Source: a virus
Direction: 5' to 3' (one strand)
Virus record (IMG/VR): IMGVR_UViG_3300006841_000019
Coordinates: 1-27,293 of that record
Length of the DNA stretch: 27,293 bases
Below the pieces are notes generated by a model, which worked only from the letters and a program-made list of their open reading frames with translations, was not told the DNA's origin and ran no database searches. The translations under genes and the position numbers were made by a program. How positions within the stretch are numbered: position 1 is the stretch's first letter; each line of letters opens with the position of its first letter. Positions 4,783-27,257 of this stretch are shown here, piece after piece.

Positions 4783-4986
4783 CTAGCTAGTAACCGATGC
4801 TGTTTCTGGATCTCCCACTTTTCTGGCAGCAACAGCCTTAGCAATAGCGATAAGCGCCGCAACTCCGGCGATCTTCAAGGAATCACCCCAGTCAGGTCCG
4901 GGTACAGCCATAGCTGCGGCCCATGCCTGAGCAAAGGTAGAGATTCCACGTTCCAAACTGTCTTTAATAAAACGCTGGTTGAACAA
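4783..4986 (-). CDS. Holin, r1t-like (67 aa)
   Basis: The protein reads FNQRFIKDSLERGISTFAQA, a linker, a hydrophobic segment SLKIAGVAALIAIAKAVAA and then RKVGDPETASV. The FxKDxxERxxSTFxQA head and GDPExAS tail are hallmarks of small holins of actinobacteriophages. Such holins form lesions in the cytoplasmic membrane that release the endolysin at the end of infection. The frame is open upstream, but all candidate starts are non-ATG. I chose TTG at 4986 because GGAG lies 8 bases upstream and the protein then begins at the family motif; an upstream TTG at 5031 would give 82 aa. The gene overlaps the last 23 bases of the amidase gene, pairing the two lysis functions. Confidence 0.85.
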   Translation of the reverse strand: MFNQRFIKDSLERGISTFAQAWAAAMAVPGPDWGDSLKIAGVAALIAIAKAVAARKVGDPETASVTS

Positions 4987-5776: not shown

Positions 5777-6126
5777 TCTGACTCGGGTGGCGTTGCTTCT
5801 GCCCAATCTTCTATGTCATTATCCCAATATGCCAGACAAGGCGGCGCACCAAACCCTTCTGGGTAGGGCTTATCCGCTGGTGGTTGCCACTCATAGTTTT
5901 CATCTAGCACCCATCCCTTATATGGAGATGGAGGGTAAAACAACCCGAGAGGATAACCCTCTGCTTCTGGAACAAACGTCGAGCCGGGACCGGCCACGTT
6001 TTTGCGGATATTGTCTGCGGTTTCATACCAACCAGACCACCCCAAATCAACTGGGGTGAGGCCATCTTCGAACACAGCGACATTTATAACGACATCATCT
6101 TGGTTTACTTCTGCAAAAGTTCTCAC
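5773..6126 (-). CDS. Probable tail-fibre accessory protein of a common aquatic-phage type (117 aa)
   Basis: The protein starts MRTFAEVNQDDVVINVAVFEDG and then shows, in order, NIRKNVAGPGSTF (39-51), YPPSPYKGWVLDENYEWQPP (64-83) and a final YWDNDIEDW (99-107). This layout (RKNxAGxGxTF, PPxPYxxWVLDExxxWxPP, YxWDxxxxxW) is familiar from small proteins beside fibre genes in cyanophages and other aquatic phages. Their function is not established; fibre assembly or a fibre tip subunit are the usual guesses. It starts at GTG 6126 in a GTGA overlap with the glycine-rich adhesin gene, so the two are probably made together. No catalytic motif is visible. Confidence 0.6.
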   Translation of the reverse strand: MRTFAEVNQDDVVINVAVFEDGLTPVDLGWSGWYETADNIRKNVAGPGSTFVPEAEGYPLGLFYPPSPYKGWVLDENYEWQPPADKPYPEGFGAPPCLAYWDNDIEDWAEATPPESE

Positions 6127-10317: not shown

Positions 10318-11265
10318 TTAGTTATCGCCAATAGTAGAAGCTGCTTCCACACGGACCATGCATTCTTCACGGAAGATGCCGTAGCCAACAAGGTGGTACC
10401 AGCCAATTGGGTTGAACCGACGCAGAGTATCAGTCACAGGACCAACAACAATGCTTGGATCAGAACCAAATCCGGGGGCACGAGAGAACGCTTTTGCGAG
10501 CGCTTGACGGCCACAGATAAGGGTTTGGTAAACATCGACATTGCTTGTGCCACCGTCGGCAATTAAACCGGCACGTGGGTTTTCGATGTATTCGATGCCA
10601 TTGAATGTACCAATGGAACCAGCACGAACCGGTCCACCTTCTTGGTACAGTTGATACTGGATAACATCAGTAACCGCTGTATCTCCACGAAGGTCGTAGG
10701 AAACGTCAGGGTGAATGATCGCCATGTAGTTTCCATTTTCCCAACCGGGAGCGTTGGCAGTCCGCAACTTAGCTACGGCTTGCCTGCCTAACGCAGCAGT
10801 GTAGTTATCAGTAGCTGTGATTGCGCCACGGCTTGTTTGGCCCGAATAGATAATTTGGTCAGTGTCGGTGCTGCCATTGGCAACATTTGACACAATTTTA
10901 TCTAACGAGTCAGCCATGTTGTAACCAACAATGTTGGCTGCATCAGAGTCAACATTGAGGAATGAAGTTCCACGCACCAAAGCAGTTGAGATAACAGCAT
11001 TACCGTACTCAGCAAGAGTTACAGTCACTGCGCTATCAGTCAAAGCAACAGCAGTCACATCTGTAGCTTCAGTGAGAGCCGTAGTTGCCTGCGCCATGTC
11101 AGCGTAGAACGTAAATTGAACGCCAGAACCGTTATGGCTCTGAGCGGTGGACCTGACATCAGCGACCATTTCGAAAAGAGGCTGCGAACGTAAAGCAAAG
11201 TACGCAACCTGATCGAACGCCGTTTTTACCTGATCGTCAAGTGTGGTGGTAGTTGTATATGCCAC
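10318..11265 (-). CDS. Major capsid protein, N4-gp56-like (315 aa)
   Basis: The protein builds the head shell. The N-terminus TTTTTLDDQVKTAFDQVAYFALRSQPLFEMVADVRST, the strand GVQFTFYADMAQATTALTEATDV and the stretch VTVTLAEYGNAVISTALVRGTS, leading into DKIVSNVANG, follow the pattern of N4-gp56 family capsid proteins, which have the HK97 fold. The middle (YMAIIHPDVSYDLRGD, about 177-192) and the C-terminus (RRFNPIGWYHLVGYGIFREECMVRVE) also fit, as does the length of about 300-350 aa. The start is GTG 11265 with AGGA 6 bases upstream. That ribosome site is inside a hairpin (see 11268-11290). The gene directly follows the scaffold-like gene, as expected. No protease was seen, so maturation cleavage is uncertain. 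Confidence 0.88.
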   Translation of the reverse strand: MAYTTTTTLDDQVKTAFDQVAYFALRSQPLFEMVADVRSTAQSHNGSGVQFTFYADMAQATTALTEATDVTAVALTDSAVTVTLAEYGNAVISTALVRGTSFLNVDSDAANIVGYNMADSLDKIVSNVANGSTDTDQIIYSGQTSRGAITATDNYTAALGRQAVAKLRTANAPGWENGNYMAIIHPDVSYDLRGDTAVTDVIQYQLYQEGGPVRAGSIGTFNGIEYIENPRAGLIADGGTSNVDVYQTLICGRQALAKAFSRAPGFGSDPSIVVGPVTDTLRRFNPIGWYHLVGYGIFREECMVRVEAASTIGDN

Positions 11266-11885: not shown

Positions 11886-13079
11886 CTAAGTTGCTGTGCC
11901 ATATCCAGTCACACCGGTTTGGGTTGTCAATAACCCTGTATCTCCTTTGAATGCTGCGCCTCGACGTTGCTGTGTTCGCCCTACCGTAGAAGGTCCGGTG
12001 CCAATACCGAATGCGCCTTCACCTATCTGGTCAGCAGTTAAACCTGTTTCGTTAAGCAAGTTAGCTGTCAAACCCTTCAACGGGGATACTCGTGCAGCTA
12101 TTTCGCGACCTTGGACATTTAAACGCTGCAACTCATCGGAAAGATCTTTACTGAATGTGTTTTGTGGACCAAGTGCTTTTTGGGATTGAGAAGCTAAACC
12201 AGCAGCACCAAATTGGCGACGGGCATCTACAATGTTTTTAGTTTTTGTTGGATCAAGCATTGCTGAAACAATGTCACCTTCACCAAATCCGTAACGTGAC
12301 TGCAACAATTCTATGGTTGTGTCATCCGCATTATTCTTTGCTTCTTCCCCAAGAGCTACACGGTCACGCCATTCAGCTAAAGAAACATCCCCACCAATTA
12401 AAGCGGTAATACCAGTCACACCTGTTTCCGCATCCATGCCAAGAAACTCATTGTCGATTCCGGCTCGATTAGCTATCTGTAAAATGCCTCGTTCAAGATC
12501 AAGGTACTCTGCTTCGTTAATTGCCCGGAACCCTCCGGCCTTACGCAACGCCATTGCAGGGAACTTAGTGTCATAAACCTGACGTACAGTTGGGTCATTA
12601 CCGTAACGCAGTTCTACAAGCATTGCTTCTTGGGACATGCCTGACTCTGCCCAACCCATAGCTATCTTTGTTAAAGCACCCAGCCCGAATCGTTCAAGGA
12701 AACTGCGGATAACTGCTTTAGCACCTTTAATGTTTTCGTCACGTTTCCATCGTTCCCATTTATCGTATGGATCTTCTTCACCGGGAAGCCGGTCTATAGG
12801 AGCAATTACTTCCCCAGAAATATAGGTATTTATTCCTGTTACTGGATCTGTCCAATAACCTGCACCAAGGTCAGGGTTTTCTTCAGAAGAAAGCGGTTCA
12901 ACCCAACCTTGTCCTGCTACCCATCGACGCATATTAGGAACAAAGGTCTGTCCGGCTTCTACGCCTCGTTCGGGAGTCCAACCAATAGCTGCTCTAGCAG
13001 CTTCCCGTTCGTCTTTTGAACCTTCTCTACGGTCTATTAGGTTGCCTTCTTCGTCTGTATCGTAATATTCAATAGCCAT
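11886..13079 (-). CDS. Putative internal virion protein (397 aa)
   Basis: I do not recognise a named domain. The N-terminal 110 residues are acidic and Trp-rich (GWTPERGVEAGQTFVPN, YWTDPVTGINTYISG). Residues 115-200 are helical: AVIRSFLERFGLGALTKIAMGWAESG, then EAMLVELRYGNDPTVRQVYDTKFPAM and AINEAEYLDLERG. A short-loop pattern of this kind (ILxxYGLxxLxxxIxxWxxxGxSxxEixxxLRxxxxYxxxFPA...LSExEY) recurs in large structural or ejection proteins of phages. The C-terminal 100 residues are Gly/Thr/Gln-rich and look disordered. It starts at ATG 13079 in a TAATG overlap with the transglycosylase-domain gene and ends before the scaffold gap. It is therefore the last of four coupled large genes, most likely ejected or inner-core proteins. 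Confidence 0.5.
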   Translation of the reverse strand: MAIEYYDTDEEGNLIDRREGSKDEREAARAAIGWTPERGVEAGQTFVPNMRRWVAGQGWVEPLSSEENPDLGAGYWTDPVTGINTYISGEVIAPIDRLPGEEDPYDKWERWKRDENIKGAKAVIRSFLERFGLGALTKIAMGWAESGMSQEAMLVELRYGNDPTVRQVYDTKFPAMALRKAGGFRAINEAEYLDLERGILQIANRAGIDNEFLGMDAETGVTGITALIGGDVSLAEWRDRVALGEEAKNNADDTTIELLQSRYGFGEGDIVSAMLDPTKTKNIVDARRQFGAAGLASQSQKALGPQNTFSKDLSDELQRLNVQGREIAARVSPLKGLTANLLNETGLTADQIGEGAFGIGTGPSTVGRTQQRRGAAFKGDTGLLTTQTGVTGYGTAT

Positions 13080-14998
13080 TACGCAACCTCTCCCATAAGC
13101 CTGCCCAATCCAGTTACAAGCTCATAAGCGTTATTAATCCCCCGTGGACTTTGATCGTATTCGTCTGTTTGTCGAAGCCAGCGAGCAAAATCCCCACCCG
13201 ACATCTCCATCGGGTGTTCTCCAACTCCAGTTAACCCACCAAGCTGGACAGCCATATCTTTGTGGCGGCCATCCCATGAGGGGTTATAACCCATCACGGA
13301 ACTAAAGATTCCGTTATAGCTAGACACAATAGAAAGCGGAGTTTTGCCAGCTTCAATGCGGTCTTTCCATGCAGGGAACAGCAAAGCTGCCTGCTCAATC
13401 ATTTCATCTTCAACCAAATCAACAGTTGTCTCACCCGTAAACAGTTGTTGAGAACGCCGTTTCAATAACTCTTCATCCGGGTCCATCAAATACTGGCGGT
13501 ACAGATCTTTGATCTCGCTTCGGAAATCCGAAATCGTTCCACCAGCAGGAGCCCCTATACCAAAATCGAAAAGAGGACTTCCTGTATCTGTTGTTGCTGT
13601 AACTAAGAAATCTTTTATTTCGGCAAGGTTTAGTCCTTGCAAATAGGATTGTTTCGCTAACTCCCAAATCTGGTTGTCGTCAAGGTTTATGTTGGCTTGC
13701 CCAAGGATCTGTTCAAGTTGTTCAACCTGAATAGAGATCAGGTCAAGACGACGAGTGGACCATTCGTCTTCGTCCTCACCGCCGCTATTCCACTTGTATT
13801 CTCTGTCTGCTCTACCAACTTCACTGTCTTGATAGTGGTCTGTTTGGTAGTAAATACTTTTGATCCATTGCTCCATTTCTGGAGTGCCATCTTCAAAGCC
13901 AAGAGGATTCTCTTCAATGAGTTCAACAAGATCAACCATTTCACCCGTAATGGGGTGTTCAACTAATACTGAAGGATTTCCCCGTAAGTACTCCCACATC
14001 AAAATATCTAGCTTGGATGTTTTGGACTCAATGCTTGCTGCTAAATCTTGTTCTGGAGTAGAGAATTGTCCTGACTCATTTGGGTCTTGGATAACTATTT
14101 CTTCTTCCTCTATGACAGGCGGAGCATCCGTGGGTGGCCCTTCAAAACTGGCTGTTTCTCCGACCATAACTTCGGGACCACCAGAAACTATGTTGCCTTG
14201 GTCATCATAAATAACTGGCTCAATATCTTCTGTTTCTGGGCCTAAATTGAACTGTCCTGTTTGCCACGGGTCAGTAACAAAATCAGGGTACATCCGTTTA
14301 TAGTCGTTAAGAACATCTCTTATATCTTCGCCGGTCGCCTCTTCCGTTTCTTCAATAGCTTCTTGCGTTTCAGGACCATCAATGCCATCAACCGTTACAC
14401 CAACAACTGCTTGTATTTCAGCAATACCAGCCGGGTTGTACCCTACGTTGTCCGGTTTAACAAATTGTTTACGACGGAAAAGCCCTAGATCATCTTCGAC
14501 ATTCCAATCCGTAGGCAAATACTTATCTGCTAGATCGCTCCACTTTTTTCGCCAATCACTTTTTTTATTATTTAATTTCGCTTCGCTATTAACCCATTCC
14601 TCATATACATCTCGCCCTGTTTGCAGTCGCTCCGAGACAACTAATGCGAGTGCACGCAAATTGTCATCGACATTATTTAGAAGTGCATCTCTCATAGCTT
14701 CTCGGGAACTAAAATCAAGTCCACCGTCGTCTGCTGTCGGAGCACCCCATCGGTAACTTAAATCAAGACCTTGTGGGTCTTTATCAGTGACATTTACTTG
14801 CCAAATCCCAAGAGAATATTCTCTGTTTGCAACATCACGAACAGTCTCATGTTGCGTATCTCTAAGATCAGTTCGCATAGGTGTCAGGAAATGCGTTTCT
14901 TCTTCAGCAAGAGCCATCAGATGAGGAATAATTTCACCACGAAATCCGAGATCGTAAAGACCCCTGATAAGAGCCTGTTTGAGTTCCTTTAGATTCAT
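13079..14998 (-). CDS. Virion protein with lytic-transglycosylase-like domain (639 aa)
   Basis: Residues about 17-160 resemble an SLT-type lysozyme fold. LMALAEEETHF (27-37) places Glu34 where the catalytic Glu of the ESG motif would be, and YSLGIWQVNV (61-70) matches the SxGLxQxN motif. Residues 188-216 (NPAGIAEIQAVVGVTVDGI and DGPETQEAI) look like a degenerate PG_binding_1 unit. The rest is a long acidic linker (230-330) and a helical C-terminal half with FxxEIKDLYRQYL repeats. Virion-borne transglycosylases such as T7 gp16 open the cell wall for DNA entry, which fits its place among the large structural genes and away from the lysis cassette. The ATG at 14998 shares its A with the preceding TGA (TGATG). 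The catalytic assignment is by motif only. Confidence 0.7.
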   Translation of the reverse strand: MNLKELKQALIRGLYDLGFRGEIIPHLMALAEEETHFLTPMRTDLRDTQHETVRDVANREYSLGIWQVNVTDKDPQGLDLSYRWGAPTADDGGLDFSSREAMRDALLNNVDDNLRALALVVSERLQTGRDVYEEWVNSEAKLNNKKSDWRKKWSDLADKYLPTDWNVEDDLGLFRRKQFVKPDNVGYNPAGIAEIQAVVGVTVDGIDGPETQEAIEETEEATGEDIRDVLNDYKRMYPDFVTDPWQTGQFNLGPETEDIEPVIYDDQGNIVSGGPEVMVGETASFEGPPTDAPPVIEEEEIVIQDPNESGQFSTPEQDLAASIESKTSKLDILMWEYLRGNPSVLVEHPITGEMVDLVELIEENPLGFEDGTPEMEQWIKSIYYQTDHYQDSEVGRADREYKWNSGGEDEDEWSTRRLDLISIQVEQLEQILGQANINLDDNQIWELAKQSYLQGLNLAEIKDFLVTATTDTGSPLFDFGIGAPAGGTISDFRSEIKDLYRQYLMDPDEELLKRRSQQLFTGETTVDLVEDEMIEQAALLFPAWKDRIEAGKTPLSIVSSYNGIFSSVMGYNPSWDGRHKDMAVQLGGLTGVGEHPMEMSGGDFARWLRQTDEYDQSPRGINNAYELVTGLGRLMGEVA

Positions 14999-16365
14999 CA
15001 GATTGTTATTCCCATCACCTTCGCCAAGGTGTTAGCTCTACTCAAATTATTACTAGCCGCAACTTCGTCAGCAAACTCACCCTCGATGCGTTCCCCGAAC
15101 ATGGTTTGCAACTCTGTTTGAGTAACATTTTTGCGACCCATTGTTTCCCTTTGAATCTCATCAGTCCACTTTGCAACGAGGTTACGGAACCTCGGATCGT
15201 CACCACTCTTACCTGTCAAGGAAGCCATAACTTTGCTAGCCACAGCATTCCCATAAGACGAACCGATAGACACTACCGCTCCAGCATTTTTAGCAAGCTG
15301 AAACAATTCATCTGAAATGTTTTGAACCTCTTCAGGATTCCAAACTTCAGGTATGTATTCATCACCTAATCCAGTGAACCCACCTTCAGTAATATTTGCC
15401 ATACTTTGTGCATACGACTGTTGCTGAATCAAAGCCCTACGAACATTCTCATCTGCATAGATGGCATCCGGGTTAGTGAACATTACGTCACCGATAGCGG
15501 AATACATGAACGAAGTATTACCCGTACCTAAAGCTAAACCTTCAGCGATACGCTTTTGATTCTCTGGTGTTTGAGCCAAATAGACTTCGTAAGCATTGGT
15601 GTAGGTAAACGGGACATCTTCGATAAGAGCCGGGGTGAAAGACATACCTGCTTCAGGATCGTCAGTCCACCGAAGAGACATATAGTCCTCACCCATAACA
15701 GATTTCATCATCGGTGACTCGGGGCGAGCTTCAAATACTTCAAGATCTTGGATACCCATTTGTCCCGTGACTGGAGCCAAGTCATATTGGCCTCGATCTA
15801 ATGCTCCTTCTGGTTCACCGAACTCAACGGGGGTCCACGCAGCCCAGTTCTCTGGGTCAATCTGAGCTTGGATGTATGTGTCGGGGACCAGTGAACGGCC
15901 AGAACCAGCAGGATCAGGGATACGTTCAAGAGAAGTGGCTTGTTCTCCAGTACGTTCCGGTAAAGGGACGACGTTGCCTTCAGCATCTCGTGGAATGTCT
16001 TGGGGAGCTACCCCTTGTTCTTCATATTCCTCTGTGATTTCTTCTACTTCGAGAGGGGTAAGCCCTTCTTCTCCCTCTCCCTCTTCTTCGTCTTCTTCTA
16101 ATGTTATGGCTGATGGGCTCATCCAATCAGGTAAAAGACTTTTAGATTTCTTGTCTGGGTCTTGTTCAACTAACTCGTAATCCCAAGCGTTCTTAAGCCA
16201 CTCCCATATACCCGAATCATCTTTTACAGCTTCGGCAATAGCTATCTGACCTTCAGCTTCAGTTATTTTTCCTTCAGCTTGTAACCGAAAAATTTCAGCG
16301 ACCGCATCAAAAAACGAAAGCACGCCTTCTTCCAAGAAATCGGGAATCCACCTGTTGCCTGCCAT
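14998..16365 (-). CDS. Putative internal virion protein, acidic (455 aa)
   Basis: No domain is recognised. Visible parts are a helical N-terminus (FFDAVAEIFRLQAEGKITEAEGQ) and a strongly acidic linker at about 89-116 (EEDEEEGEGEEG). A middle region rich in Pro and Asp follows, then a helical C-terminus (ISDELFQLAKNAGAVVSIGSSYGNAVASKVMASL). The stretch LAQTPENQKRIAEGLALGTG and the C-terminal region are predicted soluble, with no signal or membrane segment. It is coupled to the giant upstream gene by TAATG and to the transglycosylase-domain gene by TGATG, so the products are probably made in similar amounts. This supports, but does not prove, a role in the same internal or ejected complex. Confidence 0.5.
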   Translation of the reverse strand: MAGNRWIPDFLEEGVLSFFDAVAEIFRLQAEGKITEAEGQIAIAEAVKDDSGIWEWLKNAWDYELVEQDPDKKSKSLLPDWMSPSAITLEEDEEEGEGEEGLTPLEVEEITEEYEEQGVAPQDIPRDAEGNVVPLPERTGEQATSLERIPDPAGSGRSLVPDTYIQAQIDPENWAAWTPVEFGEPEGALDRGQYDLAPVTGQMGIQDLEVFEARPESPMMKSVMGEDYMSLRWTDDPEAGMSFTPALIEDVPFTYTNAYEVYLAQTPENQKRIAEGLALGTGNTSFMYSAIGDVMFTNPDAIYADENVRRALIQQQSYAQSMANITEGGFTGLGDEYIPEVWNPEEVQNISDELFQLAKNAGAVVSIGSSYGNAVASKVMASLTGKSGDDPRFRNLVAKWTDEIQRETMGRKNVTQTELQTMFGERIEGEFADEVAASNNLSRANTLAKVMGITI

Positions 16366-19300
16366 TACGCCGCTACCTCATATTCGGTCATTAAACCGGT
16401 AGGCAAATTACCTACAGAAATTGAAAGCATGTTACTAAAATACCTGTCATAGATTGGACCGAAGTTGGGGTAACTTAATACTTCCAACAAGAAAACGTCC
16501 CACTCTTGACGAATGTCTTGGTTACCAGAATAACTCATCCGCAAATAGTTACGGTTGTTAGTGCCCTCAGCACGTTTCACCATCTTCAAAGCAAGCTGGT
16601 CATGCTTACCAACAAACATTGCGATCTGGGGAATCTCAGGCCGATACGCAAACTCTTCTAAAGAAATAAACTCTCGTAAACCGGCAAGAACTTCTTTTTG
16701 TACTTGTGGTTGACTGAAAGTATTGAACTCTTCTAACCAGAAAGAATTTTCTCTCCCAAGATCTTCAATAAATTTGCGCCGATCTTTCCACAAATCAAAG
16801 TTTGAGTTAGCTAAAAGACTTGATGAGCCCCCACCCATTGCACGGTTACGAAGTTCGTCGTCCATCGAGTTTCGGAAGACACGCCATTCTCTCCAACCCA
16901 TACTGACAGACGCATCGGTAAGAATGCCTGCCGGATTCATGTAATCTCGACGGCCATCTCGTGCTTCGAGTTCTGCAACTGCACGGTTGTAATTAAATTG
17001 GACATCAAGTGCACCGTATTCGCCTCGGACTAGTGGAGCTAGTTGAGGGTTGTTTTCCATGAAGTCTTGATGTTCTTTATATTTTTGGTGGCCTTCTAAT
17101 GTGCCTGCTCTAACTCCTTGGGCCATTGTTGTGCGTGCCGTGAAGGCCCATAGATCTGGATGATTTTCGAGAAGCCATGCGGTTGCCACATCAGGGCCAT
17201 GTTCTTCTTGTACTTTCCAATACTCGTTGATGATTCCCCAATATGGTGATTGTTGACGGAACGAAACTGGGACGGCTATTGAACGAAGCATCCTTATACC
17301 AAAGATTGCTTGTGTACGCCGATAAACCTCTTCTTCGAATGCAGCTAACTCTGTCGCATTTTGTGGAAGTTCTCGTCCTTCTTCAACGTATTGGGTAATC
17401 ATGTCTTGGGTTACTCTGGCTGCGGTTTGTGCTTTACCGGCATCAGTCATACCAGTAGCTTTAGCTCCATTACGAATCCAAGACGGAGTATGCGAATTAA
17501 TGAATCGTGTGTATATCTCTTCGCCTTCTACGAATCCGTAAGGAAGCATCCAATCAAGAGATTCGTCTAGCTGTGGGTTGCTTACAATCAATTCGGAAAC
17601 GGAGAATGAAACAAGTGGACCGAAACCGGGAAGAGCGCCGATCATGGAAGCAGATTCAAGGTTAAGGTTGATCTCTTCGTTCGCTAACTGTGAAAGTTTC
17701 CCGAAGAGTTTTATGTCTCCAATGTTGGAGTCAAAGAATCCGGGCATTGGCATAACAATGCGAGGGTTACCATCTTCGTCTTCGCCAGTGACAAGGTTCC
17801 ATGCTCGTAAAGCACGGGCAATGAACACAGGGTTTTCGCCTGCTAGCCCCATCCATCGTGTCGCTACTTCTTGCCATGCTCCGAGGAACGGGAAAAGTTC
17901 TGTAACTATTTCTTCAAACCGTGTCCGGTCAGCAAGTTCATACAAAATCTTTTTAGTTTCATCTAAAGCGTAGCGGCGAGAGCGTGTAGCCATTTCTTCT
18001 AGGGCGTTACCTGCTTCGGGAATTGTGTACGATCCGTCGCTATTCCGGTACCGTTGCATCTCGATTGCCATTTGGCGTTCGTATGCTGCTTCGAACATTG
18101 TTCCACGTGAAACAACATTTTCAACTTCTGTCAGGTTTTCAAACCATGTGTCAGTTACGTGACGAATAATTTCTTTGGCTTGTTTAATTTGTGTCCCAGT
18201 TTTGAGTCCATCCAAATATGAGGAGTCATTAACTGTTTTACCAAAATCGATGAGGGGTGCAAGACGATCAGTGAAGTCAGTTCGATTGATTCCTCGTAGA
18301 TCGTCGGCATCGATTTGTTTTCCGATTCCTCGGATTAACTCAATGAATTTGAGTTGGAGTACATCTTTTGCCGCATTGGAAACTGCGCTACTTCCCTCCA
18401 AGTAAACTGCGTCATCCAACCTATTTATGACTGCATAGTAAACAGCTTGATCGACAACGGTTCCTGTCGGGATATTTCGTATATCTCCTGTGTAAGCGAC
18501 TTCGTTAAGAATTTCTTTTGATCTTGCTGCTAGCGAATCGACAATAGGTTTTATGTCCCTGTTCCATGTAATAAGTTCACCTCTGGCAAGTCGTTCTCGG
18601 ACACCTGCGAACTCAGGTAAGTCCGGTACAAGACTGTTCGCTTCGTATCGTGTACGGCGAATCAGTTCCATTCGTGCTTCTGGGCTTCGCCACTCATCAG
18701 GCAAACTATCCAGAACAGGTCGCCCTTCAGTACTCAACCATTCATAGATTTCGTCATCTGTTTTGCCGAGCCATTGTTGCCGCCAGAAATCTCTTTGGAC
18801 TGACTGACCCGGCATCCCCGGACTACTCGCATGATTTTGGATGAATGCGTCGTAAGCTCGCACGAAGGCTTCTGCTTCGTAAGGATCTGCAATGTTGTAT
18901 TGGTGAGATTCTTCCCACGCTTCAGTCCGCCGCATTTGTGCATTTGTGTCAGACCAGATTTGGCGTTTCGTGGGATTAGCACTATTGAGACGTTCGTTTA
19001 CTGCTCTGATCTGTGGGTTGTCGCCCCACGGGTTAGGCATAGCGTTCGATCCGAGCATCGACTGGCCGTACCCTATGTCTCCTAAGAGTTCGGCTGCTTC
19101 ATCAAATTTGCCTGCAATCTCTGGGTGTTCTTTCCGAAAGTTTTCAACCACCATTTTTTGGTAGCTGGTTACTCCTTCGGAACGAGCGGCCAATAGTTTC
19201 GCTGCTTCTCGTCTGTCTTTCTTTGCTTGGGCGAGAACTTCGGCCAGTGTCATATCTTCACCGAGTTTGTTTATTTCTTCAGGAGTTAGCAAATCAAGTT

Positions 19301-22300
19301 CGAGAACTGACCTGTCGTCGAGTCCTTCTAGTAATGCACGTTCAGCTTGTTCTAGTTCATCAATCATGTGTTTGGCATCAAGAAGTAACGCTTCGCCGTA
19401 TCCTGTAGCTACTTTACGTCGAGCTAAAAGAACTTGGCTTTTGCGTGCATGTCGCCCATACATTGCTCCTGATGCTGCTGCGCCTGCTGGTCCAGCGAAG
19501 AAAAGGCCGAGTCCAGACATGAATACTGTGCGACGTTTTTGTCTACCTGCTGCGTATTCTTCTCTGATGGTTTCATCCATCAAACCTTCATAGTTTGTTT
19601 CTACTATCCCTCTGTCATAACGCTTGTTGTATTCCTGAACTTTCTCTGTAAAAGTAAGCCCTACTGCATCTTCGCCTAATACTTCATCAACTTTGCCGAG
19701 AACAATTCCTTGAACGTCAGTACCGGCACGCTCCAACCAACGAGCCCGAAGCCTGTCAAGCCTCTGCCCCATACCGGCCATAGAGTTTGCTACTCCGAGA
19801 TGAGCGAAGTTACGCAACATGGAGTCAAAATTGACAACCGTTTGCCAACGTGGAGTTAAAAGAACTCCTCGTTTCCAAGCAGTACTTATCATTCGTCGTG
19901 CTGCTTGCACTTTGGCACGTTCGGGGGCTATGTTGATTTGTTTGGGGCCATCTGGTGTGGGAATGGTTTTCATGTCGCCCTCAACCATTTTGACGTAACG
20001 ATGTATAAGGTCGTAGCGTGGCACCAACGAGGCTTTACGCATTTGGCTTGGGCTGATTGGGATACGCCGCTTAATTGTTTCGCCTCTGCTTTGTTCCCAA
20101 ATAACTTCCGTGAAGTCCACGTTGCCAAAGGACCGTTGTGTTTCGTCGGCGGCTTTATTCAGAATTTCTTTTGCTTCAATGATTTGGCCGTTAAGAATTT
20201 GCCGTAAGTCATCTGCGCCTAAGGTAACTTCAACGCCGTCGTCAAGTATTGGTCCTAACTGTTCAATGATTGTGTCGTTGATTCTTTTGACAACATCATC
20301 AAAGTGTGCTGCGAGAGCATTACGGTCGTTGGATTTGTTGAGAAACTCTATGAGTACATCGTCGGCATTAAGACCAGCAGCTTCCAAAATATTTCTTTGG
20401 GCGTAAGGAACTTCTGTTGCTAGTGCCGCCGGGATGCGTTCCACATCTCGAAGCATTCGTTCAACTTGTATATAAGCAGCGCTGGGTTGTTGTAGATCAA
20501 TAATGTTTTGAGCAACTTTATCGACAATCATTTGGACAGCGTTCGTACCCCGAACATTTCGATAGGTCCCAGATTTTTCGAAGAAAGTTTTGGCTTTGTA
20601 GCCAAGTCTGTTGCTTGGACCTAGATAGGGGAGTTGTGCATCTGGAAGAGTGGGTACTTGGTGTGCGTCGAGAATTTCGTTTGCTGCTGCTTTAACAACA
20701 TTATTGCCAACTTCAGTAGCGTATTTATCTAAGACTGTGGGCGTCCCGAATCCGTTGGGGACATCTTTAATAAGTGTTTCTACGATATTGTTTTTAAGGG
20801 AAAGAATTGCGTTCCACGGTGTATTCTTTAAATCCCCGAGGTCTTTCCACATTTGGTTAAACTCGGGTGTCCCCATTTCGGGAGTGCGGAACGATGGGGT
20901 ATCTATTTGCCCCAAAAGGTTAGCGACCCCGGTTTCGCCTTGATTTAAAGCGTCAGCGACAATTTCCATAACGTCGTCTACAAGTTGAGGATTCGAATTA
21001 GCTAACGCCGCTCTTGCGCTTTCAAGTTCTATAACTCGACGACGTATCGCATCAACTTCTTGTAAATCCTCAGCATTTCTACTTCGTTGTTCAAGTTCAA
21101 GAATCTCGTCGGTCATCCTTTGCATCTCATCTACGAGCGCTCGGCCACCGCCAAGGTTGTCTACTTGGAACATGATTGAGGCAAGTAAACTAGCTTGCCG
21201 TTCCAATGCCGGGAAGCCACCAGTACCAGCTAAAGCAACCTTTATTAGATTGTCGAACGGTAACCAACTCTGATTAGTAACTGGTCCGTCGCCTATGACT
21301 TTGGCAATAGTTCGACCCCAGTTATACATGTCTTCTGCTGGTCGATCCCAGCCTTTGCCAAGGCGACCTTGTTGACCTGCGTCGATAAATGCTTTCCCGA
21401 ACTCATCTTCAAATGTTGTCGGACCTGCGACTTTGGGACTACTGGCTTTTCCTTCTGTTTCAAGTATCCAATCAATTAATTTGGCTTGATGCGCCGGGTC
21501 TTGCAAACTAGGTTCTCTAAGGGTTGACCCTTCACGCCTTTTAGGGAATTTAGCCTCGTCGTCCTTATGGTTTTTGCCTGTGGTCTTCTCTGTATTTCTA
21601 ACCTCGGCCCACAGTTCTTCTGGAGTTTTAGCTTCTAATTCCAAACGTCGAGAAGCTGCGGAGTCGGTAACAACACCGGTACGAGCAGCCCTAGTGTCTA
21701 TCACACGAAACTTATCTTTAGGGATTCTTATAAACTTGTCTGGATTATGTGGTCCTTCGAAGGCAACACGATATTCAGAAGTGAAACGAGTATCTTTAAT
21801 CGCACCAGCGTCTTCAACAACCTGAGCCATTACAGAAGCATCAATTTCAAAAATAACCCCATCCCCTGTTGATGGACCATAAAGTGAGCTTTCTGTTCTT
21901 TTGGCATAACCAATAGCAGCGTTTATGTCAGTACCAAACGAAATTCCTGATTGCCCCGGTACAGCTTCTCTAGCATAGAAAATAAGATCACCAGTTTCAG
22001 GATCAATATATGTACCCAAATTGGCAGAATCCGCATGACGTGAACCGTGGTAAAGAACTTCATCCGCAATAGGTCCACCCCCTAATTCCTGTACCTGTTT
22101 ACGAACTAAACCTTGCTGTGGCCCAAAAGTTTCTCCAATATCAAGATATACAACTGGATGAACTAAACGATTATCTGGAGCTAAAGCATCAGGATCTTCA
22201 GCCCTTTTAGCTCGAACTTCTTCGGCTATGTTCCAGATCTCTGCACGGAACTTGTCGAACCCTGCACTATTAATTACTTCATCTACGGTGGGTGCGACTG

Positions 22301-23171
22301 TTTCATTAAGGAATGTGGGTCGGTAACTCCAGTTTTCCCAGAATGCTTCGTCACGTAAACGTGGCTGGCCTTTACGGTTCGGTCTTACGTCACGAAACTC
22401 GAATGGTGCGAGACTTGTTTGCACCATTCTTGGGTCATAAACACCGGTCGCATTATAAGTTTCTTTGGCTCGTCGCATTGCATACGACCAACGTGCTGCA
22501 CGAGCAGTCAAATAGAGAGGGTCAAGCCCAATGTTCAACGCAAAGTCAATCATGCCCGACGTTGCGAAATACCAGTCAGTTCCCTTGAACTCTTCAAGAG
22601 CTTTTGGATCCATGATGTCTACATGGAAAATAGATAACGCTAACGCTTGGCCTGCGCTTCGGCTTTGTGTCACATCCCACGCTTGTTGGTATGTACTCCA
22701 GTTGTAGATTTTACTGTCACCCAAACCGGGAATGAGTTGTTCGCCAAGGTTGCCGAATCTCTCCAGAATGTTTGTATCTTCGCCACCTATTTCTGACGCA
22801 ACCATTCGTTCGACTGTGGCAAGTGTTCCGATTGGGCGGTCAATAAAGTTTTTGTAGGTGAACTGCATTGACTCCATGAACGGAGTCCAAAGAAGAGTGC
22901 TGAATGGGTCACGTACAAAACCGGGTAATGCGCCTGCTGGTGCACCGAAAACCCCTTCCGGCCCCATTAATGCACTTGCAACATTTTTTTCCCCGGTCCC
23001 AGTTTCGGACTGCTTCCCCATAATGTTGTCTTTGAAAGACTCAATGAGAGCATCTATTGGGTTAATGTTTTTTGCTGTGTGAACTGCTGCGTCTATAACA
23101 AAGTCGGCGGCTTGTGCTCCAAGATCAAAAGGAGCATCGACTATTTTGTCGAGCCGTTCGCTGAAACTCAT
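16365..23171 (-). CDS. Giant polyvalent-type virion protein with ADP-ribosyltransferase-like domain (2268 aa)
   Basis: This gene covers a quarter of the window. Residues about 365-495 (nt 21687-22079) read as an ADP-ribosyltransferase fold: VLYHGSRHA (His375), then GISFGTDINAAIGYAKR (410-426, Ser411 and Tyr422), GVIFEID (438-444), TSEYRVAFEGP (464-474, Glu466) and IRIPKDKFRVID. The His-Tyr-Glu spacing fits the PARP-like H-Y-E class. Other parts are a coiled coil (677-725), a basic segment WKRGVLLTPRWQ (1099-1110), a Gly/Ala-rich hydrophobic stretch (1216-1239) after KRR, and a helical module at about 1680-1795 with ELFPFLGAWQEVATRW and GENPVFIARAL. That module resembles segments I recall from other giant phage proteins. 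It starts at ATG 23171 (ATGA overlap). Family size, position after the portal and lack of a signal peptide suggest a packaged, ejected protein that may modify host targets; that is inference. Confidence 0.65.
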   Translation of the reverse strand: MSFSERLDKIVDAPFDLGAQAADFVIDAAVHTAKNINPIDALIESFKDNIMGKQSETGTGEKNVASALMGPEGVFGAPAGALPGFVRDPFSTLLWTPFMESMQFTYKNFIDRPIGTLATVERMVASEIGGEDTNILERFGNLGEQLIPGLGDSKIYNWSTYQQAWDVTQSRSAGQALALSIFHVDIMDPKALEEFKGTDWYFATSGMIDFALNIGLDPLYLTARAARWSYAMRRAKETYNATGVYDPRMVQTSLAPFEFRDVRPNRKGQPRLRDEAFWENWSYRPTFLNETVAPTVDEVINSAGFDKFRAEIWNIAEEVRAKRAEDPDALAPDNRLVHPVVYLDIGETFGPQQGLVRKQVQELGGGPIADEVLYHGSRHADSANLGTYIDPETGDLIFYAREAVPGQSGISFGTDINAAIGYAKRTESSLYGPSTGDGVIFEIDASVMAQVVEDAGAIKDTRFTSEYRVAFEGPHNPDKFIRIPKDKFRVIDTRAARTGVVTDSAASRRLELEAKTPEELWAEVRNTEKTTGKNHKDDEAKFPKRREGSTLREPSLQDPAHQAKLIDWILETEGKASSPKVAGPTTFEDEFGKAFIDAGQQGRLGKGWDRPAEDMYNWGRTIAKVIGDGPVTNQSWLPFDNLIKVALAGTGGFPALERQASLLASIMFQVDNLGGGRALVDEMQRMTDEILELEQRSRNAEDLQEVDAIRRRVIELESARAALANSNPQLVDDVMEIVADALNQGETGVANLLGQIDTPSFRTPEMGTPEFNQMWKDLGDLKNTPWNAILSLKNNIVETLIKDVPNGFGTPTVLDKYATEVGNNVVKAAANEILDAHQVPTLPDAQLPYLGPSNRLGYKAKTFFEKSGTYRNVRGTNAVQMIVDKVAQNIIDLQQPSAAYIQVERMLRDVERIPAALATEVPYAQRNILEAAGLNADDVLIEFLNKSNDRNALAAHFDDVVKRINDTIIEQLGPILDDGVEVTLGADDLRQILNGQIIEAKEILNKAADETQRSFGNVDFTEVIWEQSRGETIKRRIPISPSQMRKASLVPRYDLIHRYVKMVEGDMKTIPTPDGPKQINIAPERAKVQAARRMISTAWKRGVLLTPRWQTVVNFDSMLRNFAHLGVANSMAGMGQRLDRLRARWLERAGTDVQGIVLGKVDEVLGEDAVGLTFTEKVQEYNKRYDRGIVETNYEGLMDETIREEYAAGRQKRRTVFMSGLGLFFAGPAGAAASGAMYGRHARKSQVLLARRKVATGYGEALLLDAKHMIDELEQAERALLEGLDDRSVLELDLLTPEEINKLGEDMTLAEVLAQAKKDRREAAKLLAARSEGVTSYQKMVVENFRKEHPEIAGKFDEAAELLGDIGYGQSMLGSNAMPNPWGDNPQIRAVNERLNSANPTKRQIWSDTNAQMRRTEAWEESHQYNIADPYEAEAFVRAYDAFIQNHASSPGMPGQSVQRDFWRQQWLGKTDDEIYEWLSTEGRPVLDSLPDEWRSPEARMELIRRTRYEANSLVPDLPEFAGVRERLARGELITWNRDIKPIVDSLAARSKEILNEVAYTGDIRNIPTGTVVDQAVYYAVINRLDDAVYLEGSSAVSNAAKDVLQLKFIELIRGIGKQIDADDLRGINRTDFTDRLAPLIDFGKTVNDSSYLDGLKTGTQIKQAKEIIRHVTDTWFENLTEVENVVSRGTMFEAAYERQMAIEMQRYRNSDGSYTIPEAGNALEEMATRSRRYALDETKKILYELADRTRFEEIVTELFPFLGAWQEVATRWMGLAGENPVFIARALRAWNLVTGEDEDGNPRIVMPMPGFFDSNIGDIKLFGKLSQLANEEINLNLESASMIGALPGFGPLVSFSVSELIVSNPQLDESLDWMLPYGFVEGEEIYTRFINSHTPSWIRNGAKATGMTDAGKAQTAARVTQDMITQYVEEGRELPQNATELAAFEEEVYRRTQAIFGIRMLRSIAVPVSFRQQSPYWGIINEYWKVQEEHGPDVATAWLLENHPDLWAFTARTTMAQGVRAGTLEGHQKYKEHQDFMENNPQLAPLVRGEYGALDVQFNYNRAVAELEARDGRRDYMNPAGILTDASVSMGWREWRVFRNSMDDELRNRAMGGGSSSLLANSNFDLWKDRRKFIEDLGRENSFWLEEFNTFSQPQVQKEVLAGLREFISLEEFAYRPEIPQIAMFVGKHDQLALKMVKRAEGTNNRNYLRMSYSGNQDIRQEWDVFLLEVLSYPNFGPIYDRYFSNMLSISVGNLPTGLMTEYEVAA

Positions 23172-23566
23172 GGCAACGGTTCATATTTAGCTGGAATAAA
23201 GTTTTCCATACGTCGCACAAATTGGCGAAGAGCCGGATCGGAGTAAGCATTATCAGCGATGGTGTACATCATGTGCATCGCCGGAGCTATAAGCCGTGCA
23301 CGTTCAGGGGGAAGATCAGGGACAGCATCGTCTACGGGCGGTAAAGCGTTCACATCTTCGAGTGTGCGTTCCGACGGACGGAAAGGATCTCCTCGGGAAC
23401 CTGCCGGTTCTTGCCGTCGAGCCCGAGTCGGCATTTCTGTTGGACCAAGTTCGTCAGGCAAGGGTGCTATTTGTTGTGCTTGTTCCTGTTGTGTCGCTTG
23501 ACCGTATTCTTGTCCAGTGGCAGTACGGACAGCCTGTCCTTTTTGACCCATCCCTGTTCGTGGCAT
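23168..23566 (-). CDS. Small protein downstream of the portal gene (132 aa)
   Basis: The N-terminal half is disordered and rich in Gln, Gly, Thr and Pro (KGQAVRTATGQEYGQATQQ). Proteins opening MPRxGxGxxxGxxGxxYGxRxD are common just after portal genes in actinobacteriophages, but I know no function for them. The C-terminal 45 residues (PPERARLIAPAMHMMYTIADNAYSDPALRQFVRRMENF) form likely helices that could dock to another virion protein. The ATG at 23566 is in a TAATG overlap with the portal stop, and the gene overlaps the giant gene by ATGA. It may be an adaptor between portal and internal proteins, from position only. Confidence 0.6.
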   Translation of the reverse strand: MPRTGMGQKGQAVRTATGQEYGQATQQEQAQQIAPLPDELGPTEMPTRARRQEPAGSRGDPFRPSERTLEDVNALPPVDDAVPDLPPERARLIAPAMHMMYTIADNAYSDPALRQFVRRMENFIPAKYEPLP

Positions 23567-25332
23567 TATAACGCTCCGAGTAACTCTTCAAGATTTGGTT
23601 CTGCTAGGGGTGCTTCTTCAACAGCGACTGCTGCTTCTGCTCCCATTCCCGGCATCGCTAATCCCGGTTGTGCTTCGGGAGCCATAGCGTCTACCAGTTC
23701 AGCTTGTCGTTCTTGGGCTTCTCGTTGAACTTTTTCTACGGCCCCAGCGAGTTCCATTTTGTCATGCATCACAAGATCCATAATTCGTGCAAGATCCGCA
23801 GGGGGTATAGCTCCTTGGGATGCTTGCTGCTGCACCGAAGACAACAATGCTTGTTCTAATTGCTCTCCGATTACTGTATCGTGTTCAAATTCTGGGTCAT
23901 CGACAAGAGGGTCTATAGCCATGAAGGATCGTTTGGACATGGTGCCCATTCCGACACGTTGACCGCCGCCTATAACAAGGTTGTTGATGTCTGCACCCGG
24001 ATGTGAATACGAAACAACATTGTCGGTTGATTCGAAGTTGTCGTTGGGAACATAGTTCACTCGACCTTTAGCATTTTTGGTACTCACATAGAAACTGCGG
24101 CCTCGGCCACCGGCATAACGCTTCGACATATCTAACGCTAAACGGTTCTCCTCTTGCAAGGAACGAGCCAAGATTTTTTGTGCTTCTTGAACAGTGAAAT
24201 CTACAACTGCTGAAAGTACAGCGTCACCTCGTCGTCCTGTCCGAATGTTGGATGTGGACTCGCCACCAAATTCTTGTGGTATCCCAGCAGTTAAACGCTG
24301 GGCACGTTCGAGTCTGTCAATCGCTGGGTTCGTCATGTAACCGGGTTGCATCTGCATGTCTTTAAGATCGCCGCCCCGTATAACACCAACTTCGCCTGTA
24401 AGACCGTCAGCCGGGTTGACTATTTGGGGAGTTTCACCTTGTCGGCCCACGAGCCATGTGTCGGGGAACACACCTTTTTGAACAGCAATAACTTCAAGAG
24501 CCATAAGTCTGGCTTGCATCTGGTACATGCCAAGAATGCCATCAAACTGGCCTTGCGCTGCATCAAGATTTATTCGTTCTGCACAGACAACAGGAGTTTG
24601 CCCTAACCGGTTTTCGACTCGTTCAAGTTCTATTGTTACTGCACTCTTACTGTCAGTACCGCTAGTCTTAGGCCACATCCCTGAACTTATGGGTGCACGA
24701 CTACCAATAAGAACTTGTTCTTCATTATCAACATATTCAATAAGTTCTATTGGGTGATCCCAACCAAGTGTTTCACCATCAGAGAACTGTCGAGCAGCTT
24801 CGGGATACATTTCACGTACCCACCCTAACGACCGTTCGTAAGCGAATATGATGTCACGGGGACGCATATCGTCTACACCCAACATTTTTGCTGGATAGGT
24901 TGTCAGAGGATCACGAACATGCCATTGTGGTGCACCGGTTTTGTAATCCCATCGTAATTGTGTGCACGTTGTTGCGTAACCGATGAGATGTCTTGCCCGT
25001 TTTGCAAGCTGAAGATCCATGCGACTGTTTTCCCACCAACCGAATAACGCTTGCCGTGTTTTGGAAGCGTTGTCTCGTGCCCGTTTCTTGGATGGATCTG
25101 TTGGTGGACAGTAAATATCTGGTGCAGTAGACGCAATTCGCATAGCGGTTTGATCTAAACCTTGTGAAAGAAGATTAGCTACCGCAGATGTTTCGTCGGA
25201 ATTGAGTTCTGGTAATGGTACAATAACGTCACCGTTGTAGTAGTCTCGGAGGTTACGCATCCGAGCTTTTGCTCCGTCGTTAGCTCGGGAACGGGTTGTG
25301 TACAGGGAGACAATTTCATCGACTGTCTTCAC
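23566..25332 (-). CDS. Portal protein (588 aa)
   Basis: The portal forms the dodecameric ring at one head vertex through which DNA is packaged and ejected. Support comes from length, position directly after the terminase, and internal pattern. There is an N-terminal helix with RMRNLRDYYNGDVIVPL (25-41), then AMRIASTAPDIYCPP (63-77), a wing-like central region with HVRDPLTTYPAKMLG, a stem and crown region with MYQMQARLMALEVIAVQKGVFPD, a stretch GIPQEFGGESTSNIRTGRRGDAVLS typical of portals, and an acidic Ala/Pro/Glu-rich C-terminal tail. The start is GTG 25332, with GAGG 5 bases upstream inside the terminase 3' end and 2 bases between the genes; the nearby ATG would stop at once. The exact portal family cannot be named from sequence alone. 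Confidence 0.88.
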   Translation of the reverse strand: MKTVDEIVSLYTTRSRANDGAKARMRNLRDYYNGDVIVPLPELNSDETSAVANLLSQGLDQTAMRIASTAPDIYCPPTDPSKKRARDNASKTRQALFGWWENSRMDLQLAKRARHLIGYATTCTQLRWDYKTGAPQWHVRDPLTTYPAKMLGVDDMRPRDIIFAYERSLGWVREMYPEAARQFSDGETLGWDHPIELIEYVDNEEQVLIGSRAPISSGMWPKTSGTDSKSAVTIELERVENRLGQTPVVCAERINLDAAQGQFDGILGMYQMQARLMALEVIAVQKGVFPDTWLVGRQGETPQIVNPADGLTGEVGVIRGGDLKDMQMQPGYMTNPAIDRLERAQRLTAGIPQEFGGESTSNIRTGRRGDAVLSAVVDFTVQEAQKILARSLQEENRLALDMSKRYAGGRGRSFYVSTKNAKGRVNYVPNDNFESTDNVVSYSHPGADINNLVIGGGQRVGMGTMSKRSFMAIDPLVDDPEFEHDTVIGEQLEQALLSSVQQQASQGAIPPADLARIMDLVMHDKMELAGAVEKVQREAQERQAELVDAMAPEAQPGLAMPGMGAEAAVAVEEAPLAEPNLEELLGAL

Positions 25333-25334
25333 AT

Positions 25335-27257
25335 TTACCTCACCGATGCTTCGGCTGCACTAGAAATCCACGTGGGTCGCCACTGACGATTATTGATTAT
25401 ACTCGGAACATAGATCTTCTCTAAGTTATGCTCTAAGAACCATTCTGCCATAACACAGTCGTCTGTGCGAGAACCGGTTCCTTCGGGGTTCCAACGGGTT
25501 ACTTCGTTGATGAGAAGAAGCGAATGTGGGCGTGCTTCTGTGTCTCTTTTGCCGGGCAAACGCACTCGGCCAACACGCCATAACGGAGCGAGCATCTGCA
25601 CTCCATACTTCGGGTCGCCTTTATTCCGAGAATGCGTGTAATGCGGAATAAGTTGGACGTTGCGAAGCGCTGCCCAACGCCTGAAATGGTCGTATTGGAG
25701 AATAAATTTTTGGGCTGCATTCGCTTCGATAATCCAATGAGTTATTGGATGCCCCATATCGTTACTGATTTGCCACCAGTCTTCTGCGATTCCCGAGAAA
25801 GATTGCCGTTCGTGGCTCCAATCAAGGAAATCTGGGGCATCCATTTTCCTTCGATACGATTCTAACAGGTATCGAAACTCTGTTTCCGGGTTGTAAGCCC
25901 AGCATTGGATAGCCCAAAAGTTTGCTGGCGATGGGTCTGCTGTAGCTACAACAAACAAATCATCTGATATGCCGTTGGGTAATTCCCACAAATCCCGGTC
26001 GTTGTCCCAACATCCGGGGTGATGCACTCCATCGGCACCTTCTCCGCCTGATACCCACAACGGATCCACCAAAACATTGGCTGGGTTTACGTCTGATTGC
26101 TGGTAGAGGACTTCGAATCGGTCTGGTGTTTGGGCTTTGATGTGGCGGAGTCGTCGCCACGGGAGTCGGCGAGGGTAAAGTAAACACCCTTCGGGCCAAG
26201 GTGGGGCGTCAGGTTTGTGCTCGCCTTCACAATTTTCTTCATAATGCGCTTGATATTTAAGATGACTGTACTTCCGCCATTCGTCTGGTGCGTCTTCGGG
26301 ATCAAATTCGTCGAGTTCGTATTCGTCTGGCGGTGCGACCTTATCAAGTGCATACCTGTAAATGTCATCAGCGGACATTCTTTGTCCTTGTAATACAAGT
26401 AGTCCGCCGGGTTCAAGCCGGGTTTCTGCGACTTCATCCCACCATCTTCGCATATCTTCACGGGATTCCGCTGACCGCATTTTGCGTGGATCATATACGT
26501 CGTCCCATATGACTAAATCGAAACGGCCACCCAAGAAACCGGAGTCCATACCAAACGCAGACCATGTTGGTTCTTTCTGGGAGAGCGGCACATCATCTTT
26601 TTGTAAAACAGTGAACGCTTCGGCACGCCAAATCTCTGAAGAGTCTGGTTTAAACATGCCGAAGTCTTCTTGCAGCGTGGCTTCAGCATCGATCGCCAGT
26701 TTTAAACGAACATCGTTTAACTCTGCTCTAACCGGATGCGCTCGATCTAACTCGGCACGCAACCTACGACAATACCATTCCGCCAAACGCTGCGTAGAAG
26801 ACCCGATCATGCCACGAACGGCACGATTACGCACAGTCGCCCATGCAGGTAACACTTTAGCGAAAAATGTGGACTTTCCAGTACCGGGAGGGGCGTTTAT
26901 TACCACATACTCTTCGAATTCGGTTTCGAGGAGCGCCATAATCCTTTCAGTTGCTTCAATTTGCCACGGTTGTAAAATAATCCCAAAATACCTTTTGGCA
27001 AAGATTTCGATATTATCGTAAGCAGCCTGCGCCTCGGGACAAAGGTCATCATATTGGGGAACTTCCGGTTGAATTGTTTTGCCGAGGGCTTCTTGGGCGG
27101 CGATGTAGTTTCTCGGGGCTTTGCCGCTTTCTGCGTCTCGGCAAGCGTGGTAGGAGAGCCCTGTTTGTTTTGAGGATGCATAGAGAGATAGTCCTTGTCG
27201 GCGGAGTGCTTGATAATCCGCCCATTTCTCTATTGTTGTCGCTTTACCTGACGGCAT
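25335..27257 (-). CDS. terL: Terminase large subunit, with N-terminal helix-turn-helix-like segment (640 aa)
   Basis: This is the DNA-packaging motor. The ATPase shows Walker A APPGTGKS (122-129), an adenine-motif-like LQPWQIEATERIM (95-107), Walker B LVIWDD (248-253) and a coupling motif LVLQGQRMSADDI (287-299). The C-terminal RNase H-like nuclease has Asp441 in ATADPS, Glu511 in WIIEANAAQK and Asp599/Asp600 in SRTDDCVMAEWFLEHN. Before the ATPase, residues 8-45 (IEKWADYQALRRQGLSLYASSKQTGLSYHACR) look like a helix-turn-helix. That would be expected in a small subunit, none of which is seen in the window. The ATG at 27257 follows TAAGGGG with 5 bases between AGGGG and the start. The genes downstream follow the usual terminase, portal order. 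Whether packaging is headful or cos cannot be told. Confidence 0.93.
   Translation of the reverse strand: MPSGKATTIEKWADYQALRRQGLSLYASSKQTGLSYHACRDAESGKAPRNYIAAQEALGKTIQPEVPQYDDLCPEAQAAYDNIEIFAKRYFGIILQPWQIEATERIMALLETEFEEYVVINAPPGTGKSTFFAKVLPAWATVRNRAVRGMIGSSTQRLAEWYCRRLRAELDRAHPVRAELNDVRLKLAIDAEATLQEDFGMFKPDSSEIWRAEAFTVLQKDDVPLSQKEPTWSAFGMDSGFLGGRFDLVIWDDVYDPRKMRSAESREDMRRWWDEVAETRLEPGGLLVLQGQRMSADDIYRYALDKVAPPDEYELDEFDPEDAPDEWRKYSHLKYQAHYEENCEGEHKPDAPPWPEGCLLYPRRLPWRRLRHIKAQTPDRFEVLYQQSDVNPANVLVDPLWVSGGEGADGVHHPGCWDNDRDLWELPNGISDDLFVVATADPSPANFWAIQCWAYNPETEFRYLLESYRRKMDAPDFLDWSHERQSFSGIAEDWWQISNDMGHPITHWIIEANAAQKFILQYDHFRRWAALRNVQLIPHYTHSRNKGDPKYGVQMLAPLWRVGRVRLPGKRDTEARPHSLLLINEVTRWNPEGTGSRTDDCVMAEWFLEHNLEKIYVPSIINNRQWRPTWISSAAEASVR

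What the first reader, a model, noticed from the sequence alone, without database searches (positions are those of the whole stretch)
21687..22079. ADP-ribosyltransferase-like domain embedded in a 2268-aa probable virion protein
Residues 365-495 of the giant protein contain, in the correct order and spacing, YHGS (His375), a SFGTDINAAIGYA segment (Tyr422), a beta strand VIFEID and SEYRVAF (Glu466), closing with IPKDKFRVID. This matches the H-Y-E layout of PARP-like ADP-ribosyltransferases. T4 packages and injects the ADP-ribosyltransferase Alt, and ART domains are known in MuF-type and polyvalent phage proteins. Here the domain would be delivered with the DNA in a giant internal protein of a probable actinobacterial phage, which would be a new context as far as I can tell. 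The target is unknown.
Basis: partly seen in the sequence, partly recalled or inferred. Interest (0 to 1): 0.75.

Follow-up and report, generated by a model that had tools for sequence, protein, structure and literature searches.

The report
Swappable enzyme-like cassette in phage giant
Inside a 2268-residue protein that a marine short-tailed phage probably ejects into its host, there is an exchangeable module that looks like, but is not proven to be, an enzyme that tags host molecules with ADP-ribose; near-identical phages carry a different version or none at all.

Summary
In detail: minus-strand ORF 16365..23171 encodes 2268 aa, and residues 365-495 hold YHGS (His375), SFGTDINAAIGYA (Tyr422), VIFEID, SEYRVAF (Glu466) and IPKDKFRVID. 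Three divergent versions (36-42% identical) keep His, Tyr and Glu.

The ART reading is plausible but unproven. Pfam, PHROGs and PDB sequence searches find nothing. ART-PolyVal (PF18760) does not match even at E<=10. One of two weak AlphaFold models resembles ART-superfamily folds (no E below 0.18); the other does not. Profile comparison with a phage G "YHGT" family beats 150/150 shuffles.

Two close relatives (87% and ~70% identical elsewhere) lack it cleanly. A third keeps ~90% identical flanks but only 42% in the domain, with twice the synonymous divergence, so the cassette was probably swapped by recombination. Giants of more distant relatives carry other ART domains (PF03496 above cut-off; PF18760 below it), so this giant-protein family repeatedly takes up ART cargo.

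"New context" is overstated: ARTs in giant podovirus virion proteins have been described since 2017. I read it as a diverged ART-like effector in an ejection protein related to the Streptomyces podophage giant; target unknown.

The parts
16365..23171 (-). giant protein, 2268 aa, probable internal/ejected virion protein
   Evidence: lies between portal and scaffold/capsid genes; homologous to Streptomyces podophage Immanuel3 gp9
21687..22079 (-). ART-like domain, residues 365-495
21417..22202 (-). exchangeable cassette, about residues 324-585 (ART-like domain plus variable linkers)
   Evidence: absent in L010 and L117, replaced in L009
22047..22049 (-). His375 codon (YHGS)
   Evidence: invariant in window, L002, L003, L009
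21939..21941 (-). Ser411 codon, position corresponding to the strand-2 Tyr of PARP-type ARTs
   Evidence: invariant; correspondence is my reading of the motif
21906..21908 (-). Tyr422 codon (IGYA)
   Evidence: invariant
21774..21776 (-). Glu466 codon (SEYRVAF)
   Evidence: invariant
22191..23171 (-). conserved N-terminal part of the giant, residues 1-327
16401..18251 (-). conserved C-terminal module of the giant, residues about 1641-2257
   Evidence: profile of 615 positions found in related giants including Immanuel3 (E 6e-74)
25335..27257 (-). terminase large subunit
   Evidence: PHROG 38, E 5e-48
23566..25332 (-). portal protein (by position and conservation)
   Evidence: no PHROG hit; synteny with the Immanuel3 portal; alignment
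13079..14998 (-). 639-aa protein, second large probable ejection protein; N-terminus looks lysozyme/transglycosylase-like
   Evidence: only weak PHROG endolysin matches, E 0.3; no PDB relative
10318..11265 (-). major capsid protein
   Evidence: PHROG 1357, E 7e-61

Best explanation
Residues 365-495 are a strongly diverged ADP-ribosyltransferase-superfamily domain. It sits in an exchangeable cassette (about residues 324-585) of a giant internal virion protein of a marine short-tailed phage, probably of actinobacteria. SHOWN: the domain, its conserved residues, and the cassette's presence/absence and divergence pattern. INFERRED: the giant is packaged in the head and ejected with the DNA; the domain then uses host NAD+ (His375 positioning NAD, Tyr422 stacking on nicotinamide, Glu466 catalytic) to modify a host protein or nucleic acid early in infection, as T4 Alt does, or to blunt a defence. 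Cassette turnover fits selection by changing hosts or targets. The target is unknown.
For: Motif order and spacing H...SF(x10)Y...FEID...E...RIP..FRVID, invariant (bar one S-F/S-L change) in three versions 36-42% identical. The domain is under stronger constraint (nonsyn/syn codon changes 0.52 between window and L002) than its linkers (4.0 and 2.75), as expected of a folded, functional domain. Foldseek of model 1: ranks 1, 4, 5, 10, 12 and 19 are RES, ParT and Arr-2, all ART-superfamily folds, though none is significant; the viral library gives phage G gp532, a YHGT protein of the same motif order. hhalign against the gp532 family: in-register, P 0.013-0.014, reached by 0 of 150 column shuffles. 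Other giants of the same family carry ART domains: L053 has PF03496 at E 5e-7 to 6e-9, above cut-off; L083 has a sub-threshold PF18760 at E 0.0017. Virion context: terminase, portal, giant, large proteins, scaffold, capsid. Precedent for ejected ARTs: PMC5512222, PMC9503650.
Against: No Pfam, PHROG or PDB sequence match; PF18760 absent even at E<=10, although the positive control RPP1 scores 1e-10. Comparison with the N4-type ART profile is not convincing (5-9 of 150 shuffles score as high). Both models are low confidence (pLDDT 64 and 69) and the second gives only OB-fold noise. The gp532 family used as a bridge has no Pfam or PDB ART match itself. Only four sequences of this domain are known here. 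Packaging and ejection are inferred from synteny.
Confidence: 0.6

Rival explanations
1. An unrelated, non-enzymatic folded module (structural, binding or channel-related) inserted in an ejection protein; the H, Y and E are structural residues and the ART resemblance is coincidental.
For: No family or fold hit; models of low confidence; variable cassettes occur in virion proteins for structural or receptor reasons; another relative, L122, fills the slot with unrelated sequence.
Against: Five signature positions invariant in divergent copies; ART-like folds among the top Foldseek hits of model 1; shuffle test against the gp532 family; independent ART domains in related giants; the cassette is dispensable in L010 and L117, so it is no core part of the channel.
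Confidence: 0.27
2. An ART-fold domain that has lost transferase activity or acts as NAD-hydrolase/phosphorylase (RES-like): it depletes NAD+ or binds nucleotides instead of modifying a target.
For: Top Foldseek hits are RES and ParT; strand-2 Tyr position is Ser411 in all versions.
Against: His, Tyr422 and Glu all kept; the hits are not significant; RES-type residues were not tested.
Confidence: 0.13

Closest known systems
Roseovarius Plymouth podovirus 1 vRNAP (CBX87992) N4-type ART, PF18760 ART-PolyVal
   Same: ART domain with YHGT...FFT...YA...E inside a giant (about 3760 aa) virion protein of a marine podovirus, predicted to be ejected (PMC5512222)
   Different: Carrier is an N4 virion RNA polymerase, not found here; the window domain does not match PF18760 and profile comparison is not significant
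Phage T4 Alt (Alt/VIP2 clade)
   Same: Virion-packaged ART injected with the DNA (mechanistic analogy, PMC5512222)
   Different: Alt is R-S-E type and a separate protein; no direct comparison made here
Streptomyces Beephvirinae podophage giant protein (Immanuel3 gp9, 1648 aa)
   Same: Homologous C-terminal module and similar place after the portal; relative Abafar is a podovirus by TEM (PMC11536984)
   Different: No ART-like cassette; annotated hypothetical
L053 giant with PF03496 ADPrib_exo_Tox
   Same: Homologous giant with an ART domain in its variable middle
   Different: R-S-E type ART at another position (860-995), so an independent acquisition
Bacillus phage G gp531/gp532 YHGT proteins
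   Same: Same motif order; weak profile and fold match
   Different: Small separate proteins, not inside a giant; no Pfam match
WhiB-ART fusion of a Ca. Actinomarinales phage
   Same: ART-toxin-like domain in a marine actinobacterial phage (PMC7771536)
   Different: Fused to a transcription factor, not a virion protein; not compared here

Membership tests
ADP-ribosyltransferase superfamily | Conserved catalytic positions (H-Y-E/D/Q or R-S-E) in order, kept across homologues | tested here: met
   His375, Tyr422, Glu466 invariant in four sequences; strand-2 Tyr replaced by Ser411
ADP-ribosyltransferase superfamily | ART fold (split beta-sheet NAD cleft) | tested here: inconclusive
   Model 1 weakly ART-like, model 2 not
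ADP-ribosyltransferase superfamily | Significant profile match to a known ART family (usual, not strictly defining) | tested here: not met
   weak in-register match to the gp532 family only
ADP-ribosyltransferase superfamily | NAD-dependent activity | not testable with these tools
   needs biochemistry
ART-PolyVal (PF18760) | Match to the model | tested here: not met
   no match at E<=10; control RPP1 1e-10
Polyvalent proteins (Iyer et al. 2017) | Several disparate enzymatic domains in one polypeptide | tested here: not met
   no other domain recognised in the 2268 aa
Polyvalent proteins (Iyer et al. 2017) | Large protein encoded among late virion genes, predicted to be injected | tested here: met
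   gene order terminase-portal-giant-scaffold-capsid; injection itself inferred
Beephvirinae-type podophage giant protein | Homologous conserved C-terminal module and synteny | tested here: met
   profile E 6e-74 to Immanuel3 gp9; synteny
N4 virion RNA polymerase | RNAP module | tested here: not met
   no PHROG or Pfam RNAP match in the giant

The most novel reading that the evidence does not exclude
The giant ejection protein of this podophage lineage is a cargo platform with an exchangeable effector slot: phages swap, gain and lose different ADP-ribosyltransferases (a new, Pfam-invisible family here; R-S-E and PolyVal-like types in relatives) within an otherwise conserved ejected protein, to match host targets or defences.
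Probability: 0.4. Interest if true: 0.65.

Novelty: new variant of a known kind. Interest (0 to 1): 0.47.

Why it matters
If right, near-identical marine phages differ in which enzyme their ejected giant protein brings into the cell. That gives a natural with/without comparison for what a virion-delivered ADP-ribosyltransferase does, and points to a slot from which further effectors can be mined. It also shows an ART-like family that current profile libraries miss.

Tried and rejected
Pfam on the domain: only RmuC at E 0.002-0.02, below cut-off, discarded. PDB sequence hits (ACRIIC5, TLP-IPT) are chance. tblastn of the domain against 50,697 phages: nothing for the window copy; weak hits for L003 (ACP17, Dulem virus 34) lie antisense to the annotated genes, so chance. 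Two genome-contig scans with ART queries gave nothing, so no bacterial source of the cassette was found. A second AlphaFold model on the shorter L003 copy was meant to sharpen the fold call but pointed to OB-fold noise. A stricter regular expression did not match even the window domain and was dropped. A regular expression for R-S-E motifs failed to find the L053 ART that Pfam found. Giants L014, L018, L020, L022, L045 and others were scanned for ART domains and have none recognisable.

Full report
WHAT IS THERE. The window is a 27,293-base viral contig. Its large genes are on the minus strand: terminase, portal, a 132-aa protein, the 2268-aa giant, proteins of 455, 639 and 397 aa, a probable scaffold and the major capsid protein. 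The cited stretch translates on the minus strand to residues 365-495 of the giant, exactly as described, with His375, Tyr422 and Glu466 correctly numbered.

RELATIVES. Close relatives in IMG/VR: L002 (giant 94% identical), L009 (82%), L003 (giant 36-49%, in three matched stretches). All carry the domain at the same place. The window, L003 and L009 versions are mutually 36-42% identical, yet keep YHG, the Ser of the SF motif, the Tyr, an Arg, FEID, the Glu and RIP..FRVID.

A CASSETTE. L010's giant is 87% identical on both sides but goes almost straight from EEVRAKR to FEDEFGKAF, so it lacks about 260 residues. L117 (68-75% identical) lacks it too. In L009 the flanks are about 90% identical but the domain only 42%; half of the unchanged residues there have synonymous changes against 24% elsewhere (Fisher P 6e-5). 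Fast protein evolution alone does not raise synonymous change, so the cassette was probably replaced by recombination. Between window and L002 the domain is conserved (nonsyn/syn 0.52) while its linkers are not (4.0 and 2.75). On a tree of the conserved C-terminal module, domain-bearing giants fall in two places (window/L002/L009; L003), each beside giants without it (L010, L117; L122): at least two gains or three losses at one slot.

WHAT CARRIES IT. A 615-position C-terminal profile connects the giant to the giants of many related viral contigs and to Immanuel3 gp9 of Streptomyces podophages (E 6e-74; tblastn; annotation). Abafar of that group is a podovirus by electron microscopy (PMC11536984). 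An actinobacterial host is therefore plausible but not shown; the marine origin is my reading of the metagenome numbers, not a tool result. The place between portal and capsid genes, next to large proteins, fits an internal or ejected virion protein; this is inference.

IS IT AN ART? Against: no match in Pfam, PHROGs or PDB sequences, none to ART-PolyVal at E<=10, while the known Roseovarius Plymouth podovirus ART scores 1e-10. For: model 1 (pLDDT 64) puts RES, ParT and Arr-2, all ART-superfamily folds, among its best PDB hits, though at E 0.18 or worse; the viral library lists phage G gp532, whose sequence has the same motif order. hhalign to that family is in register and beats all 150 column shuffles; to N4-type ARTs it does not. 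Model 2, on the L003 copy (pLDDT 69), gives only OB-fold noise. By hand alignment with N4-type ARTs, Tyr422 corresponds to the Tyr of RDYA after strand 2, and Ser411 takes the strand-2 position. I put an ART fold at about 0.7 and an active, delivered enzyme of that fold at 0.6.

SUPPORT FROM THE GIANT FAMILY. L053's giant, homologous over the C-terminal module, holds a PF03496 ART domain above the curated cut-off at 860-995, in a stretch its nearest relatives lack. L083, a more distant giant in the same gene position, has a sub-threshold PF18760 match, and L072 a YHGSS motif. The giant family thus takes up ART cargo repeatedly; most of the 40 giants scanned with Pfam have none recognisable.

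MECHANISM. Most likely: packaged in the head, ejected with the DNA, acting on NAD+ and a host target early in infection. Only the domain and its evolution are shown; packaging, ejection, activity and target are inferred from T4 Alt and the polyvalent-protein model (PMC5512222, PMC9503650).

KNOWN OR NEW. ARTs inside giant podovirus virion proteins, and packaged phage ARTs generally, are known (PMC5512222, PMC9503650); ART-toxin-like domains in marine actinobacterial phages too (PMC7771536). New here: an ART-like family outside current models, a non-RNAP carrier family, and clean presence/absence plus replacement of the cassette in closely related phages. Hence a new variant of a known kind, of moderate interest.

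Noticed in passing
L053: 6988-7401 (giant residues 860-995): R-S-E type ADP-ribosyltransferase (PF03496, above cut-off) inside a homologous giant protein, preceded by a YHGSP motif.
   Followed up: partly
L083 giant, residues 1026-1143: Sub-threshold ART-PolyVal match (E 0.0017) in a giant protein downstream of terminase in a distant relative.
   Followed up: partly
L072 giant, residue 759 on: YHGSS...RYAKGG motif at the place where L053 has YHGSP; may be another ART-like domain; contig ends soon after.
   Followed up: no
Bacillus phage G, L107: 1816-2886: gp531/gp532 and two further paralogues form a YHGT family with ART-like motif order but no Pfam match (tested for gp532).
   Followed up: partly
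L122 giant, residues about 370-851: The same slot holds about 480 residues of unrelated sequence with no recognisable ART motif; content unknown.
   Followed up: no
window 13079-14998 (-): 639-aa protein whose N-terminus (LMALAEEETHF...YSLGIWQVN) looks like a lysozyme/transglycosylase; candidate second ejection protein.
   Followed up: no
window 3306-3716 (-): 136-aa protein with an FmdB-like zinc-ribbon start (MPIYCYRCLDCG...CDACKG), overlapping another ORF.
   Followed up: no
window 4964-5806 (-): Probable N-acetylmuramoyl-L-alanine amidase with a peptidoglycan-binding C-terminus (endolysin), by eye.
   Followed up: no
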